From: Siniperca chuatsi
Taxonomy: Eukaryota > Chordata > Actinopteri > Centrarchiformes > Sinipercidae
NCBI RefSeq assembly: GCF_020085105.1
Contig: NC_058046.1
Location: 1,654,628-1,718,627 of the forward strand
DNA length: 64,000 bases
Direction: 5' to 3'
Positions 2,432 through 59,477 of the stretch are shown piece by piece. Positions within the stretch are counted from its first letter, which is position 1. The number at the start of each line of letters is the position of its first letter. Under the pieces are notes generated by a model, which saw only the letters and a list, made by a program, of their open reading frames with translations, did not search any database and was not told the origin of the DNA. The position numbers and the translations under genes were made by a program.

Positions 2432-5094
2432 CATCTGGATTCAGGATTGTTCTGCTGGGAAGAAGTGAGGACAAACGGACAAAACTTGGTAACTTAATCA
2501 TCAGGGACCAAGGTTTTCATTACCAAAAAAACAGGCAATGTGTGGCCACCTGTGGAGAGTGGAGAGGAGAACCATTAACAGTAGTGAAAACTCCAGACAT
2601 GTTCAGTCTGTCTGAGGAGATGCTGAGAAGAAAGGTGAAGAGCTGTGTGACTCTTTGTCGTCCTGGACCAAATGTTCTGCTGCTGTTAGTGAGGCCTTCA
2701 AAGTTCACAGAGAAGAACAGACAAACACTGAAGTTCATCCTGAGTTTGTTTGGTCAAGATGCTTTTAAACACTCAGTGGTCATCAGCACACATGATGGAA
2801 CGAGTGTCTCTGTGAATCAGCTGCTTAAAGACTGTGGAGGAAGACACTACAGGATGTTGAAAGATGACCGCAGACTGTTAATGCAGACAATTAAGAACAT
2901 TGTGCATGAAAACAAAGGAACCTTCCTCACCTTCACTGAAGAGACCATCAGACCAAAGTCTGAACACATCAAACCAGCTTTAAACCTGGTTCTGTGTGGG
3001 AGGAGAGGAGCAGGGAAGACTTCAGCAGCCGAGGCCATTTTAGGTCAGACAGAGCTTCATTCAGTCTCCAACTCATCACAGTGTGTTAAACATCAGGGAG
3101 AGGTGTGTGGACATCGGGTTTCCCTGGTGGAGCTGCCTGCCTTGTATGGAAAACCTCAGGAGGCAGTGATCCTGAGGGCGTCCATGCCTTCAACATGGTC
3201 CTACCTGTGGGTCCCCTCACTGATGAAGACAAGAGAGAGTTAGAGACCATCCAGAACACATTCAGCTCTCGAGTCGATGACTTCACCATGATTCTGTTCA
3301 CCGTGGAGTCAGATCCTGCAGCTCCAGCTGTTGTTAACTTTGTAAAAGGAAACAAGGACCTCCAGGAGCTCTGTCAGAGCTGTGGAGACAGATATGTTGT
3401 TCTCAACATCAAGGGCAAGCAGCAGATCCCAGAGCTGTTGGATGCTTTGAAACAAATGAGAGTTGAAGGATCCAGATGCTTCACAAAGGACATGTTCACC
3501 AAGGCTCAGATGGAGAAGGTTTCAAAACTTAAAGCTGAGCTGGACGTTAAAAAGAAAAGTGAGATGGGAATTGATGAAAACCAGAGCAGAGAGTGTCTCA
3601 GGATGGTGCTGATTGGGAAGACTGGCAGTGGGAAGAGTTCAACTGGAAACACCATTTTGGGCAAGGAACATTTTAATTCCAGAGCCAGTCAGAAGTCAGT
3701 GACCAAGTTTTGCCAGAAAGCATCAGGAGAGATTGATGGATGGCCTGTCGTTGTGGTCGACACCCCTCGGCTTGTTTGACACGACTCTGTCCCACGCTGA
3801 CGTTGAACAGGAGCTTGTGAAATGCATCAGCATGTTGTCTCCTGGACCTCATGTGTTCTTATTAGTGCTGCAGATCGGCCGCTTTACACAAGAGGAAAAA
3901 GACTCAGTGGAGCTGATCAAGAAATATTTTGGCAAGAATTCACAACATTTCATCATTGTTACATTCACCAGAGGAGATGAGCTATACAACCAAACATTTG
4001 AGAGTTACATAGAAGAAGACTCTGATGACTTTGTAAAAAAACTGATACATGACTGTGGAGACAGATATCATGTTTTCAATAATAAAGATCAGAAGAATCG
4101 TACTCAGGTCAGCGAGCTGCTGACGAAGGTTGAGTCAATGGTGAGGAAAAACAGCGGCAGCTGCTACACCAATGAGATGTTCCAGGAGGCAGAGGCCGCA
4201 ATAAAACATGAAGTAGAGAGAATCCTGAGGGAGAAGGAGGAAGAGATGCAGAGACTGAAAGCAATGAAAAGAAGAATGGAAGAACAAACAGCAGAAATTG
4301 AACAGGAGAGAAAACTGAGAGCTAAACAACTTACAGTAATGGAGGAAAACATCAACAAGGAGCGTGAAAAGAGAGAGAAAGAACAGGAAAAGAGAGAAGA
4401 GGAAGACAACAAAAAGAAAAGGCAGGAAGAACTTCAACAACAGGAGTGGGAGCAAAAACTTAAACATCTGGAGGAAAAAATAAAGTCAGAATCAAAGGAA
4501 AAGGAAACCATTGACAGAGAGTTGGAGCAGAGCAGAGAAGAGATGAGAAAGCAACAAGAGCGCTGGGAGAAGGAAAGAAAAGACTGGTGGGAGAAACGAA
4601 ATCAAGAAAATGAACAGAGACGACATGAGGAGCAAACAAAACTTAAAAAGCTCCAAGACGAATATGAGCAGGAAAGAGAAAATTATGAAAAGAAAAGAAA
4701 AGAAGAAGATCGAAACAGAAGAGAACAGGAGGAGAAGGAGCGGAAAGAGTTAGAGGAAAACTATAAGACAAAACTGCAGGAAATGAAGAAGAAATATGAA
4801 GAGGAGGCCAGAAAACAAGCCGAAGAGTTCAATGAGTTCAGACTGAAATACACCAAAGACTTTTCAGCGTTGGTAGAAAAACACATGGAGGAAATAATGG
4901 ACATGAAGCAAAAACATGAGAGAGAAATGCAAGAGACAGGAGGGAGACATGAAAAACAGTACAATCTGTTACAAGACCTCTCAAGTCACAAAGAAAAACA
5001 TCTAAAAGGAGAAATGGAGGACGTGAAGAAAAAGCACGAACAAGAAATAAATGAACTAAAACAGAAATACAAAGACAAATGTATCATCCTCTGA
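2432..5094 (+). pseudogene. Copy A main coding exon (G2-G3-G4-coiled coil-CaaX)
   Basis: This single long exon is homologous to B 13871-16550. Two lesions split it: frame 1 is open to 3243, a second frame runs from about 3105 to 3779, and the third part is open from 3733 to 5094 (453 aa including most of G4). Relative to B, a coiled-coil stretch of about a dozen codons is missing near 4260. The last four residues CIIL are kept. Confidence 0.75.
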
Positions 5095-5729
5095 TCTCTC
5101 ACTGACTGATGTTTTGCTTTTTCCTTTTTTTCTGGACCACATGAGCATGCTCAGCAGGAACTCCTCTGACATCTGATGAGTCCCTGCCTCGCTAATGACG
5201 TTTTCTCAAAACATTCATGGACACGAGCAATATCAAAATAATGCTAATCATGGACTTCAGCAGCAGAACGCTGTCGCAGCATCTCGTTCGCTTGAAATGA
5301 AGAGCTGCTTGGAGGAAGTTTTCCAAAAAACAACAACAATTCTAATATTTTATCCATATAGTTTGTGGTGTCTGAAAAGCCACAAATCGATGCAGAGAAC
5401 CTTTTTCAGCAGCTCGTTGTTTGGACTCAAGGTTCAAGTAAAATAACTGTTAGTTTACAGATCAGTTTCCAGGTGTTGGTGTTAGTTTTACCTGGCATGC
5501 GTCCATTTAGTAGTACATTTAGTAAGCACATCCCGTTACTGCAAGTGTGTCCGTGTGCTTTCTGTTAATTAATTAATTTCTTATTAGAAACGGTGTCAGG
5601 TTGAAAATCCCACATATTCACGAAATGTAAGAATTCAGTTATTCATTACCGACATTACTGAACAGGAACAAAATTCTCTTCTCTATTCTCTGAAAGTATT
5701 CAGAGCGCAGTCAGCCAGTTGTTATTCCG

Positions 5730-57009: not shown

Positions 57010-59477
57010 TCATGTGTGTTCTTTTGTCTCTGTAGTGTGTGTGTTTGCAGGACTCAGAAAAACGTAACATAAAAAAAATAATTGCAACATCAACAGCACA
57101 AACAAAGAACATGTCCACTTTCTTCTCTTACGATAGTACTCTTCTTGGAGCTTTCTGTAGCTTGTTTTCACCTCCTCCAGGCTCTGTTTATCCTCCTGAC
57201 GTATTCGTTCCCAGATGTCTTTTCTTTCCTTTTCCCAGGCGTCTCGATCTCTCTTCATCTCTTTTCTACACAGCTCCAGCTTCCTCTCAGCATTTTCCCT
57301 TTGCTCTCTTTCTGATTGAACTGTTTTCTCCGAAGCTTCCAGTTTTCTTCTCCATTCCTGTCGCTGAGTTTCTTCTTGTTTTTTCCGTCTCCTCTCTTCT
57401 TCCTCCCGTTCTTTCTTTCTCTTCTCACGCTCCTTGTTGATGCATTCGTCTTTGTCCTTCAGCTGTTTCGATAACAGTTTTCTCTCCTGTTCAATTTCTC
57501 CACGCTGTTCATTCATTTTCCTTTGCAGTGTTTTCAAATCTTCCTCATGTTTTCTGAGGTCCTCGTCCTTTCTCTTTATCTCTTCTTCCTTCTCTTTCAA
57601 AATCCTGTCCACTTGTATGAATTCCTCTGTGTCATCAAACCTCTCAGTGTTGTAGCAGCCACCATTTTCCTTCACCATGGTCTCGATCTTGGTCAGCAGC
57701 TCTCTGACCTGTGTGCGGTTTGTGTCATCTTTGTTGTTGAAGACCAGGTATCTCTCCCCACAGTCATTTATGAGTTGTTTGACAAAGCCATCACAACCTT
57801 CGATATAACTCTCAAATGTCTGATCTTCCAGATCATCTCCTCTGGTGAATATAATGATGATGAATTCTCCAGATTTCTTGCCAAAATATTTCTTGATCAG
57901 CTCCACAGAGTCTTTTTCCTCTTGTGTAAAGTTTCCTATTTGCATCACTAATAAGAACACATGAGGTCCAGGAGCCAACAGGCTGAAGCATTTGTGAAGC
58001 TTCTGTCGAATTTCATCATCAGACAGAGTTGTATCAAACAAGCCGGGGGTGTTGACCACAGCGACAGGCCGTCCAGCAATGTCTCCTGTTGCTGTCTCAT
58101 AAGACTTGGTCGGTGGCTTCGGGGCGATTCTGGGTTTGAAATGCTTTTTCCCTAAAATAGTGTTTGCTGTCGCACTCTTCCCACTGCCAGTCTTCCCAAT
58201 CAGCACCATCCTGAGAGGCTCTCTGCTCTGGTTTTCATCATCACCTCCCTCCTCACGCTGTTTCACATCCTGCAGTTCAGCTTTAAGTTTTGAAACCTTC
58301 TCCATCTGAGCCTTGGTGAACATGTCCTTTGTGAAGCATCTGGATCCTTTAACTGTGATTTGTTTCAAAGCATCCAACAGCTCTGGGATCTGCTGCTTGT
58401 CCTTGATGTTGAGAACAACATATCTGTCTCCACAGCTCTGACGGACCACCTGGATTTCTCTGTTCTTTCTTACAAACTCAACAACAGCTGGAGCTGCAGG
58501 ATCTGACTCCACAGTGAACAGAATCATGGTGAAGTCATCGACTCGAGAGCTGAATGTGTTCTGGATGGTCTCTAACTCTCCCTTGTCTTCATCAGTGAGG
58601 GGATCCACAGGTAGGACCAGGATGAAGGCATGGACGCCTTCAGGATCACAGAGGGAGATACACCTGAATGATTCCTCCATCACTGCCTCCTGAGGTTTTC
58701 CATACAAGGCAGGCAGCTCCACCAGGGAAACCCGACGTCCACACACCTCTCCCTGATTTTTAAGACACACTGATGAGTTGGAGACTGAATGAAGCTCTGT
58801 CTGACCTAAAATTGCCTTGGCTGCTGAAGTCTTCCCTGCTCCTCTCCTCCCACACAGAACCAGGTTTAAAGCTGGTTTGATGTGTTCAGACTTTAGTGTC
58901 ATGACTAAACCTGCATCCTCATCTTCAAATACATCAAGGCTGACATGCTCTCCATTGTTCTCCTTTGCAGTTTGACCCAAGCGTGTCAACAGCTCTGGAA
59001 GTTCAAGGTTCTTCTGCTTCAGGTGTCTGTATCTACACATGCTGATCATGTCTTTTAAGGGCTGGTCTGGTACATCTTTGTCCATGAAACCTGGACTCTC
59101 CTCGCTGGGTGTTGATATTAGAACCAGTGAATGATCAAATGGTTGATCACTGAAGAGTTTCAGGACTCTGCAGAGTCTCAGTTTGAGTTCCTCAGTGAAT
59201 CCTTCAGGCTGTAGGACCAGCAGGAACACATGAGGTCCAGGATCAGAGAGTCTCACACAGTTTGTCACATGCTCTCTCAGTTTGTCTTCAGATATGTTGG
59301 GATGCAGCAGATCTGGAGTGTTGATGAGAACTATTTCTTTCTCTTTCAACTGTCCTCTGACTGTCAGAAAGTCTGGTTCTTGCTCAGTGTTGAACCTAGT
59401 CTCTCCCAGTATGAAGTTCCCCACTGAACTCCTCTCAGACCAGCTGTTCCCCAGCAGAACAACCCTCAGCTCAGACA
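57010..59477 (-). other. Gene D exon 3: all three G modules, coiled coil, anchor
   Basis: Follows TTTTCAG on the minus strand; the first nucleotide completes an ATG codon split by the intron, giving MSELRVVLLGN. Open for 822 codons. The same junction is used in copies B (11272) and C (31428). Confidence 0.88.

What the first reader, a model, noticed from the sequence alone, without database searches (positions are those of the whole stretch)
5080..57130. Two membrane-anchoring modes in one gene family: CaaX in A, B and C, tail anchor in D
A, B and C all end KCIIL, a CaaX box whose last Leu predicts geranylgeranylation. D ends in a 20-residue hydrophobic segment close to the C terminus. The mammalian GIMAPs I know use hydrophobic C-terminal segments or no anchor. 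CaaX at the end of a coiled coil is instead the arrangement of some guanylate-binding proteins. A switch of anchor within a tandem array could direct paralogues to different membranes.
Basis: partly seen in the sequence, partly recalled or inferred. Interest (0 to 1): 0.8.

Follow-up and report, generated by a model that had tools for sequence, protein, structure and literature searches.

The report
Fish immune GTPases with two anchors
A fish family of immune GTPases ends either in a lipid-attachment signal or in a membrane-spanning tail; both endings are old and conserved, and the membrane-spanning branch has mostly lost residues it would need to switch on GTP.

Summary
Copies A, B and C end KCIIL-stop with identical DNA; D ends in a 19-residue membrane segment 14 residues from its C terminus. 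The window is mandarin-fish-like (Siniperca) and the genes are GIMAP8-like. Of 349 listed homologues, 149 have Cys at -4, with prenylation-type a2 and X residues. CaaX tails occur patchily from sturgeon to perch-like fish; 0 of 17 carp-like and 0 of 7 salmonid proteins have Cys at -4. D-type tails form one clade (28 of 29 sampled), so the split is old, not a switch within this array. In the window the three CIIL tails are one tail: C joins another GTPase domain to an A/B-type stalk, CaaX and 3' flank. A, B and C carry lesions. New here: the tail-anchored class has lost switch residues in its last domain. G3 Asp is kept in 6 of 47 and the arginine-finger position in 3 of 47, against 94 and 95 of 96 CaaX rows. 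I propose a prenylated, GTPase-competent class and a tail-anchored, switch-dead class. Prenylation, localisation and partnership are untested.

The parts
1209..5094 (+). Copy A, GIMAP8-like, broken: lacks 34 bp at about 3165/3166 (frameshift) and has one base more than B at about 3767 (frameshift in last AIG1 domain). Start at 1209 is inferred from the first residues of P0002
   Evidence: matches S. chuatsi P0002, 'LOW QUALITY PROTEIN'
4186..5091 (+). A: charged helical stalk ending in CaaX CIIL (5080-5091)
11271..16550 (+). Copy B, four AIG1 units by comparison with tuna P0226; shares the 34-bp deletion (about 14604) with A; last domain and stalk open
15639..16547 (+). B: stalk ending in CIIL (16536-16547)
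31455..35374 (+). Copy C: fragments 31455-31682 and 32857-33645 (stop TAG at 33115-33117), then open last AIG1 domain + stalk + CaaX 33788-35374
   Evidence: 99% to S. chuatsi P0001 'golgin subfamily A member 6-like protein 6'
34430..35371 (+). C: long helical stalk (model helices 211-328 and 333-520, last 8 residues unstructured) ending in CIIL (35360-35371); stalk end and 3' flank nearly identical to A/B, GTPase domain is not
57010..59541 (-). Gene D, open 843-codon frame, three AIG1 domains + stalk + tail anchor
   Evidence: 97.6% to S. chuatsi P0121
57628..58215 (-). D last AIG1 domain (residues 443-638 by Pfam); P-loop GKTGSGKS and G4 TRGD kept, G3 Asp replaced by Asn (N497), arginine-finger position by Asn (N537)
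   Evidence: residue numbers read from the column list
57112..57627 (-). D helical stalk; the model is one helix, residues 638-829, running into the membrane segment
57055..57111 (-). D tail-anchor membrane segment (residues 811-829), KRRKW just before it, 14 residues after it

Best explanation
These are teleost GIMAP8-like proteins: partly degenerate N-terminal AIG1 domains, one last AIG1 GTPase domain, a long charged helix as a stalk, and a C-terminal membrane device. A/B/C-type proteins keep G1, G3, G4 and the arginine-finger position in the last domain and end in a CaaX box. Inferred: CIIL is geranylgeranylated by GGTase-I (possibly partly farnesylated), then trimmed and methylated, so the protein is a peripheral membrane GTPase whose head sits on a stalk of about 300 residues (roughly 45 nm if fully helical, at a recalled 0.15 nm per residue). 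D-type proteins form an old clade in which a shorter stalk runs straight into a tail-anchor transmembrane helix; in most of them the last domain keeps nucleotide-binding motifs but has lost the G3 Asp and the arginine-finger position. Inferred: D is a fixed, nucleotide-binding but non-switching scaffold, and CaaX-type proteins, reversibly on the membrane and GTPase-competent, dock on it by GTPase-domain dimerisation, as is reported for human GIMAP7 acting on membrane-anchored GIMAP2. Shown: sequences, conservation, clade, residue losses, predicted helices. Inferred: prenylation, topology, lack of hydrolysis, partnership.
For: CaaX is selected, not chance. Cys at -4 in 149 of 349 homologues, against 0-25 at the other positions from -1 to -30. 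Among the 149, X is never D, E, K, R, P, G, N, H or W (0 of 149; these are 57% of residues in -34..-5) and a2 is I, L, V, T, M or F in 147 (24% in -34..-5); in class 'other' the figures are 52 of 99 and 30 of 99. The last residues of the C model (521-528) are unstructured after two long helices. Lysines before the Cys fit GGT1 substrates as described in PMC1175975 (passages). D-type tails: 28 of 29 sampled membrane-tail rows in one clade, SH-aLRT 100; 46 tails picked by a KW before the end (window D included) have a median Hessa sum of -2.4 and a median of 2 residues after the segment. Residue loss: Thr, Asp and Arg all intact in 92 of 96 CaaX rows and in 3 of 47 membrane-tail rows. Review PMC8201404 (passages): GIMAP2 and GIMAP5 bind GTP but do not hydrolyse it alone; GIMAP7 promotes hydrolysis by GIMAP2; anchored GIMAPs are proposed as scaffolds.
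Against: No prenylation, localisation or GTPase assay was available. In this window A, B and C are damaged, so in this fish the CaaX branch may be dying. Occurrence is patchy: 0 of 17 cypriniform and 0 of 7 salmonid proteins that I picked out by name have Cys at -4, and a few of the 149 (P0265, P0270, P0274) are probably truncated models ending by chance in Cxxx. Residue loss and membrane tail coincide on essentially one branch, so the link is one event plus later decay. P0064 (Cheilinus), a separate membrane-tail gain, kept all three residues, and so did P0153 and P0180; P0122, P0137 and P0176 keep the G3 Asp but not the Arg. Whether the membrane tail arose inside the CaaX group is not settled (p-AU 0.308). 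A partnership between the classes has no direct evidence.
Confidence: 0.62

Rival explanations
1. Two anchors without division of labour: both endings only place similar proteins on different membranes, and the D-type residue losses are relaxed constraint in a decaying paralogue.
For: Residues at the lost G3 site vary widely in the membrane-tail rows (N 30, D 6, K 3, T 3, I 2, V, H, R 1 each), and switch I Thr needs 12 changes on the tree, as relaxed constraint would give. In the window's copies B and D the first AIG1 domain lacks a P-loop match.
Against: P-loop Lys 44 of 47 and G4 Asp 43 of 47 are kept in membrane-tail rows, Asn predominates at the G3 site (30 of 47) and at the Arg position (30 of 47), and membrane tails are kept in fish of many families, which fits a retained nucleotide-binding role better than decay. 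No codon-level test was run.
Confidence: 0.25
2. The CaaX boxes in this window are relics: A, B and C are pseudogenes and the anchor contrast has no function in this fish.
For: A has two frame breaks, B one, C a stop and a split 5' part; S. chuatsi copy A is labelled LOW QUALITY.
Against: B and C keep an open last domain, stalk and CIIL; C is predicted as a 676-aa protein in S. chuatsi; long CaaX relatives are listed in many other fish, though their gene models were not checked one by one.
Confidence: 0.35
3. The tails are modules exchanged by recombination between neighbouring copies, so anchor type need not follow the GTPase domain.
For: C joins a GTPase domain only 63-70% identical to A/B to a stalk end and CaaX 92-100% identical and a closely similar 3' flank. 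Within the C-domain clade 23 of 52 tails resemble tail type 1 and 25 of 52 type 2.
Against: No exchange between CaaX and membrane tails inside the D clade is seen: the tail class needs only 3 changes on the 90-row tree, 2 being the minimum.
Confidence: 0.3

Closest known systems
Mammalian GIMAP family (GIMAP1-8)
   Same: AIG1 GTPase domain; C finds GIMAP7, 4, 5 and 2 first in PDB by sequence, and the top 20 fold hits are human GIMAPs. GIMAP1, 3 and 5 have a C-terminal membrane segment (PMC8201404, passage), like D.
   Different: Stated to carry no prenylation motif (PMC3804274, passage); no 300-residue stalk is described in the passages that I saw.
Human GIMAP2/GIMAP7 pair
   Same: A membrane-anchored member that does not hydrolyse GTP alone and a partner that stimulates it (PMC8201404, passages; arginine finger in figure legends of PMC8066113).
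   Different: GIMAP7 has no anchor; here the GTPase-competent class would be prenylated. R111 of C aligns with residue 108 of the 305-residue chain 3zjc; that this is GIMAP7 R103 is recalled.
Guanylate-binding proteins (human GBP1/2/5; trout Gbp)
   Same: Immune GTPase with C-terminal helices and a CaaX box (PMC9005921, passages).
   Different: Another GTPase family; in GBPs the isoprenyl group is described as buried between helices, while the present model is a long extended stalk.
Plant AIG1/IAN proteins
   Same: AIG1 family and named as prenylated in a review (PMC6866125, passage).
   Different: Distant relatives; no link of anchor class with GTPase residues was looked for.

Membership tests
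GIMAP/AIG1 (Pfam PF04548) | AIG1 domain above the curated cutoff | tested here: met
   7 of 7 window fragments given hit AIG1 at 65-369 bits, cutoff 27
GIMAP/AIG1 (Pfam PF04548) | Fold of solved GIMAP structures | tested here: met
   C model: ranks 1-20 are human GIMAPs, E 2.6e-18 to 8e-13
CaaX protein | C-terminal C-a-a-X with allowed a2 and X | tested here: met
   CIIL in A, B and C; family pattern
CaaX protein | Accessible, hydrophilic linker before the Cys | tested here: met
   Residues 521-528 without secondary structure in the model; net charge +3 in the 8 residues before Cys of C. No prenylation predictor was run
CaaX protein | Prenyl group attached in cells | not testable with these tools
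   needs mass spectrometry or labelling
Tail-anchored membrane protein (D) | Membrane segment within about 30 residues of the C terminus | tested here: met
   Residues 811-829 of 843
Tail-anchored membrane protein (D) | No signal peptide and no other membrane segment | not tested
   No predictor was run on the whole protein
Guanylate-binding protein | GBP GTPase domain | tested here: not met
   No GBP family in the Pfam scan at E 0.001; none in PDB sequence hits nor in the 50 fold hits listed of 1310
Active GIMAP GTPase (D) | Switch I Thr, G3 Asp and Arg-finger position in the last domain | tested here: not met
   D reads T, N, N; C, the reference row, has T52, D71 and R111

The most novel reading that the evidence does not exclude
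Ray-finned fish evolved a prenylated GIMAP system with no known mammalian counterpart. Long-stalk, GTPase-competent, CaaX-anchored GIMAPs (geranylgeranyl or farnesyl chosen by the last residue) work with a separate clade of tail-anchored pseudo-GTPases that act as fixed membrane receptors, so GTP-driven docking between two differently anchored membranes or membrane patches is built into one gene family.
Probability: 0.22. Interest if true: 0.8.

Novelty: new variant of a known kind. Interest (0 to 1): 0.6.

Why it matters
A mammal-based statement about GIMAPs (no lipid-modification motif) does not hold for the family as a whole: many fish members carry strongly conserved CaaX boxes. The same family offers a natural comparison of lipid anchor against protein anchor on one GTPase fold, with a matching difference in GTPase switch residues. 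It makes the scaffold-plus-activator idea for GIMAPs directly testable in fish cells, and explains why some of these genes are labelled golgin- or trichohyalin-like in public annotation.

Tried and rejected
Recent anchor switch in this array: rejected, D lies in a clade found in many percomorph fish. Three independent CIIL observations: rejected, one homogenised tail. Chance CaaX: rejected. Remnant of the CaaX stalk behind D: tblastn and blastn found nothing convincing beyond D's own coil. Membrane tail nested inside the CaaX group: seen in the tree, not demonstrated (p-AU 0.308). A first test of what follows the terminal coil failed because local alignment matched the low-complexity coil everywhere (T1: 64 of 187; T2: 20 of 26); it was replaced by a motif-based test (41 of 44), whose motif is hand-made and was written after seeing the tails. 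CaaX in Entamoeba AIG1: considered, but in the passages seen the two papers use CaaX for a protease. GBP membership: rejected.

Limits of the census: each protein search listed only its best 120 of 1407, 291 and 5799 hits; by search, Cys at -4 is found in 65 of 120, 38 of 111 new and 46 of 118 new proteins. I saw no tetrapod, shark or lungfish name among those listed, apart from entries in which a second source gives a ferret label to a tilapia protein. Class 'other' (99 of 353 rows, many truncated or partial gene models) was left out of the trees. Of the remaining 254 rows, 252 had a last domain long enough and 223 were left after removal of near-copies of the same tail class. The 90-row tree is a random sample of 86 rows plus the four window rows, without the AROM class and with no CaaX-coil rows from outside the two large sets. 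Class AROM is a crude composition rule and includes truncated models. The tail prototypes were chosen by eye.

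Full report
What is there. The window comes from a mandarin fish or close kin: C is 99% identical to S. chuatsi P0001, whose public name is a golgin, and D is 97.6% identical to S. chuatsi P0121. Copies A, B and C (+ strand) and D (- strand) are GIMAP8-like proteins with AIG1 domains. KCIIL-stop is found three times, in identical DNA, and in none of 100 shuffles. D's frame of 843 codons ends in a 19-residue membrane segment, residues 811-829, with KRRKW just before it and 14 residues after it.

State of the copies. The full CaaX-type plan is seen in tuna P0226 (1178 aa): four AIG1 units, stalk and KCIIL (mapped on the window). 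A and B share a 34-bp deletion in the third unit that shifts the frame. A also differs from B by one base in the last AIG1 domain, which shifts the frame again. C has a stop at 33115-33117, and its 5' part is split between 31682 and 32857. The last domain, stalk and CaaX are open in B and C. D's long frame is unbroken; its first exon was not traced. So in this fish three of the four copies are damaged upstream, and claims of function for the CaaX type rest on other species.

The tails of A, B and C are one tail. Over the last GTPase domain C is only 63-70% identical to A and B. Identity climbs from the start of the coil (81-88%) and is 92-100% from about 34690 to the stop. Past the stop all three are 94-97.5% alike for about 140 bases, and A and C for about 285. 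The simplest reading is that recombination or gene conversion gave C an A/B-type stalk and tail.

Is CaaX conserved? Three protein searches gave 349 different proteins (the best 120 of 1407, 291 and 5799 hits). Cys stands at -4 in 149 of 349; at the other positions from -1 to -30 it occurs 0 to 25 times. Given Cys at -4, the last residue is L 51, Q 32, S 22, A 12, M 10, C 6, F 6, I 4, T 3, Y 2, V 1. It is never one of D, E, K, R, P, G, N, H, W, although these make up 57% of the preceding 30 residues; a2 is I, L, V, T, M or F in 147 of 149. Conditioning is on the Cys only, so this is not circular; the rows are related, so the numbers are not independent trials. Of 44 proteins with the terminal-coil motif in the last 60 residues, 41 have Cys at -4; the other three look truncated or altered (P0028, P0058, P0070).

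Where it occurs. Names are, tails. Cys at -4 is found in at least one protein each of perch-like fish, tuna, cichlids, killifish, Centroberyx and Polymixia, and in 2 of 7 catfish, 2 of 5 characin, 1 of 2 tarpon, 1 of 3 bowfin, 2 of 3 alligator-gar (both CRVQ, a weak motif) and 3 of 5 sturgeon/paddlefish proteins that I picked out by name. It is found in 0 of 17 cypriniform, 0 of 7 salmonid and 0 of 4 spotted-gar proteins, and in the eel-like and herring-like proteins that I picked out (4 each) only as CEFY and CHRY, which are not good boxes. So the trait is old or repeatedly gained in ray-finned fish, and patchy. One species can hold several tails: Nile tilapia entries end CTVF, CSIL, CALQ, CVTQ and in a membrane segment (P0039, P0346, P0323, P0332, P0190).

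Tail classes. By a simple rule, 353 rows (349 plus four window rows) fall into Cxxx 123, a hydrophobic stretch plus Cxxx 29, membrane segment 79, aromatic ends 23 and other 99. The hydrophobic-plus-Cxxx group is Gly/Ala-rich and ends in Q in 28 of 29. The median length from the last AIG1 domain to the end is 303 residues for Cxxx, 183 for membrane segment and 94 for the hydrophobic-plus-Cxxx group. Cxxx tails themselves come in a basic type (as in A-C) and a type with few lysines near the Cys; in the C-domain clade 23, 25 and 4 of 52 are type 1, type 2 and unlike.

Tree. In a 223-row FastTree of the last domain, the four tail classes need 32 changes, against a mean of 99 for shuffled labels. 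On a 90-row tree with the proximal stalk added, 28 of 29 membrane-tail rows form one clade with support 100; the other, P0064 from Cheilinus, sits beside a CaaX protein and is a separate gain. D is in this clade; the members that I checked by name are percomorphs. Drawn with the hydrophobic-plus-Cxxx rows outside, the clade lies among CaaX rows, which would mean CaaX first and membrane tail second, but holding the CaaX-coil rows together is not rejected (p-AU 0.308).

The anchor class goes with the state of the GTPase. In the 92-row set that holds A, B and D there are 47 membrane-tail and 44 CaaX rows (and one AROM); the 63-row set that holds C has 52 CaaX rows (and 11 AROM). G3 Asp is kept in 6 of 47 membrane-tail rows, 43 of 44 and 51 of 52 CaaX rows, and 29 of 29 hydrophobic-plus-Cxxx rows. 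The Arg of the GRxT stretch is kept in 3 of 47, 43 of 44, 52 of 52 and 24 of 29; switch I Thr in 25 of 47, 43 of 44 (one gap), 51 of 52 and 25 of 29. P-loop Lys (44 of 47) and G4 Asp (43 of 47) are retained in the membrane-tail rows. All three of Thr, Asp and Arg are present in 92 of 96 CaaX rows and 3 of 47 membrane-tail rows: P0064, P0153 and P0180. P0153 is the first branch of the clade, and P0176 and P0137, the next, keep the Asp. This suggests that the membrane tail came first and the losses later. The Arg aligns with residue 108 of the 305-residue GIMAP7 chain 3zjc; that this is the catalytic arginine finger R103 is recalled, and figure legends in PMC8066113 say only that GIMAP7 supplies an arginine finger to GIMAP2. 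On the 90-row tree the G3, Arg and Thr states need 3, 2 and 12 changes, so the G3/Arg loss is essentially one evolutionary event and not a repeated association.

Models. AlphaFold2 with 41 rows gives for C (528 aa, mean pLDDT 75.6) an AIG1 domain, helices 211-328 and 333-520, and an unstructured end. With 40 rows, D (843 aa, mean pLDDT 69.9) has three AIG1 domains and one helix 638-829 that runs into the membrane segment. pTM is low for both (0.41 and 0.32), so the relative placement of parts is not to be trusted. Top fold matches of C are human GIMAP2 and GIMAP7; D's model was not searched.

How it most likely works. CaaX type: a peripheral, probably geranylgeranylated membrane protein for CIIL, with a GTPase-competent head on a long stalk; PMC1175975 (passages) states that GGT1 prefers mainly Leu and Met at X, that some Leu motifs are also used by FT, and that GGT1 substrates have more lysines before the Cys. 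D type: a tail-anchored, nucleotide-binding but switch-dead scaffold. Division of labour between them is a hypothesis modelled on GIMAP2/GIMAP7 (PMC8201404, passages). I put CaaX prenylation at about 0.85, membrane insertion of D at about 0.9, loss of hydrolysis in D at about 0.7 and partnership at about 0.3; these are judgements.

Is it known? The GIMAP members listed in PMC3804274 are stated to have no motif for prenylation or palmitoylation (passage). Nine library searches listed no paper whose title or abstract start concerns CaaX boxes in fish GIMAPs; beyond the passages cited I saw only search listings, which are capped, and the library lacks most subscription journals. Plant AIG1/IAN proteins are named as prenylated (PMC6866125, passage), and trout Gbp has a CaaX box (PMC9005921, passage). 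So CaaX on the AIG1 family is known outside animals; its occurrence in ray-finned fish, the two-anchor split and its link to GTPase residues appear not to be described in what I could search. I file it as a new variant of a known kind.

Noticed in passing
P0232-P0349, C termini: A further GIMAP tail class: Gly/Ala-rich hydrophobic stretch followed by Cxx(Q), X = Q in 28 of 29, from bowfin and gar to cichlids; it would combine a membrane hairpin with a farnesyl-type CaaX box.
   Followed up: partly
P0051, P0060, P0077, P0093, P0215, P0224: Some relatives of C end in short aromatic, probably amphipathic helices (such as WASLWEKLSNIFK) where others have CaaX: a possible third anchoring mode, replacing the lipid.
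   Followed up: partly
window 57628-58215 (-): D's last AIG1 domain has lost G3 Asp and the arginine-finger position, as most of its clade has; this became part of the main finding.
   Followed up: yes
window 33788-35659 against 3560-5381: C is a mosaic: own GTPase domain, A/B-type stalk end, CaaX and 3' flank; identity rises near the start of the coil.
   Followed up: yes
window 22353-29049 (-): Retrovirus-like frames (by eye only) lie between copies B and C; described only.
   Followed up: no
window 36479-37391 and 43332-44060 (+): Frames that look like pieces of non-LTR reverse transcriptase (by eye, no family search).
   Followed up: no
downstream of A (5890-6121) and B (16856-17077): A piece of 3' flank shared by A and B (93.5%) lies in opposite orientation in the two copies, suggesting a local inversion or element insertion after duplication.
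   Followed up: no
P0001, P0013, P0036, P0041, P0057, P0182: Public names golgin, trichohyalin and rootletin for these proteins probably come from the stalk and hide the GTPase domain.
   Followed up: no
P0103, P0112, P0238: Some tilapia protein clusters also carry a ferret (Mustela) label in a second source, probably contamination or mislabelling.
   Followed up: no
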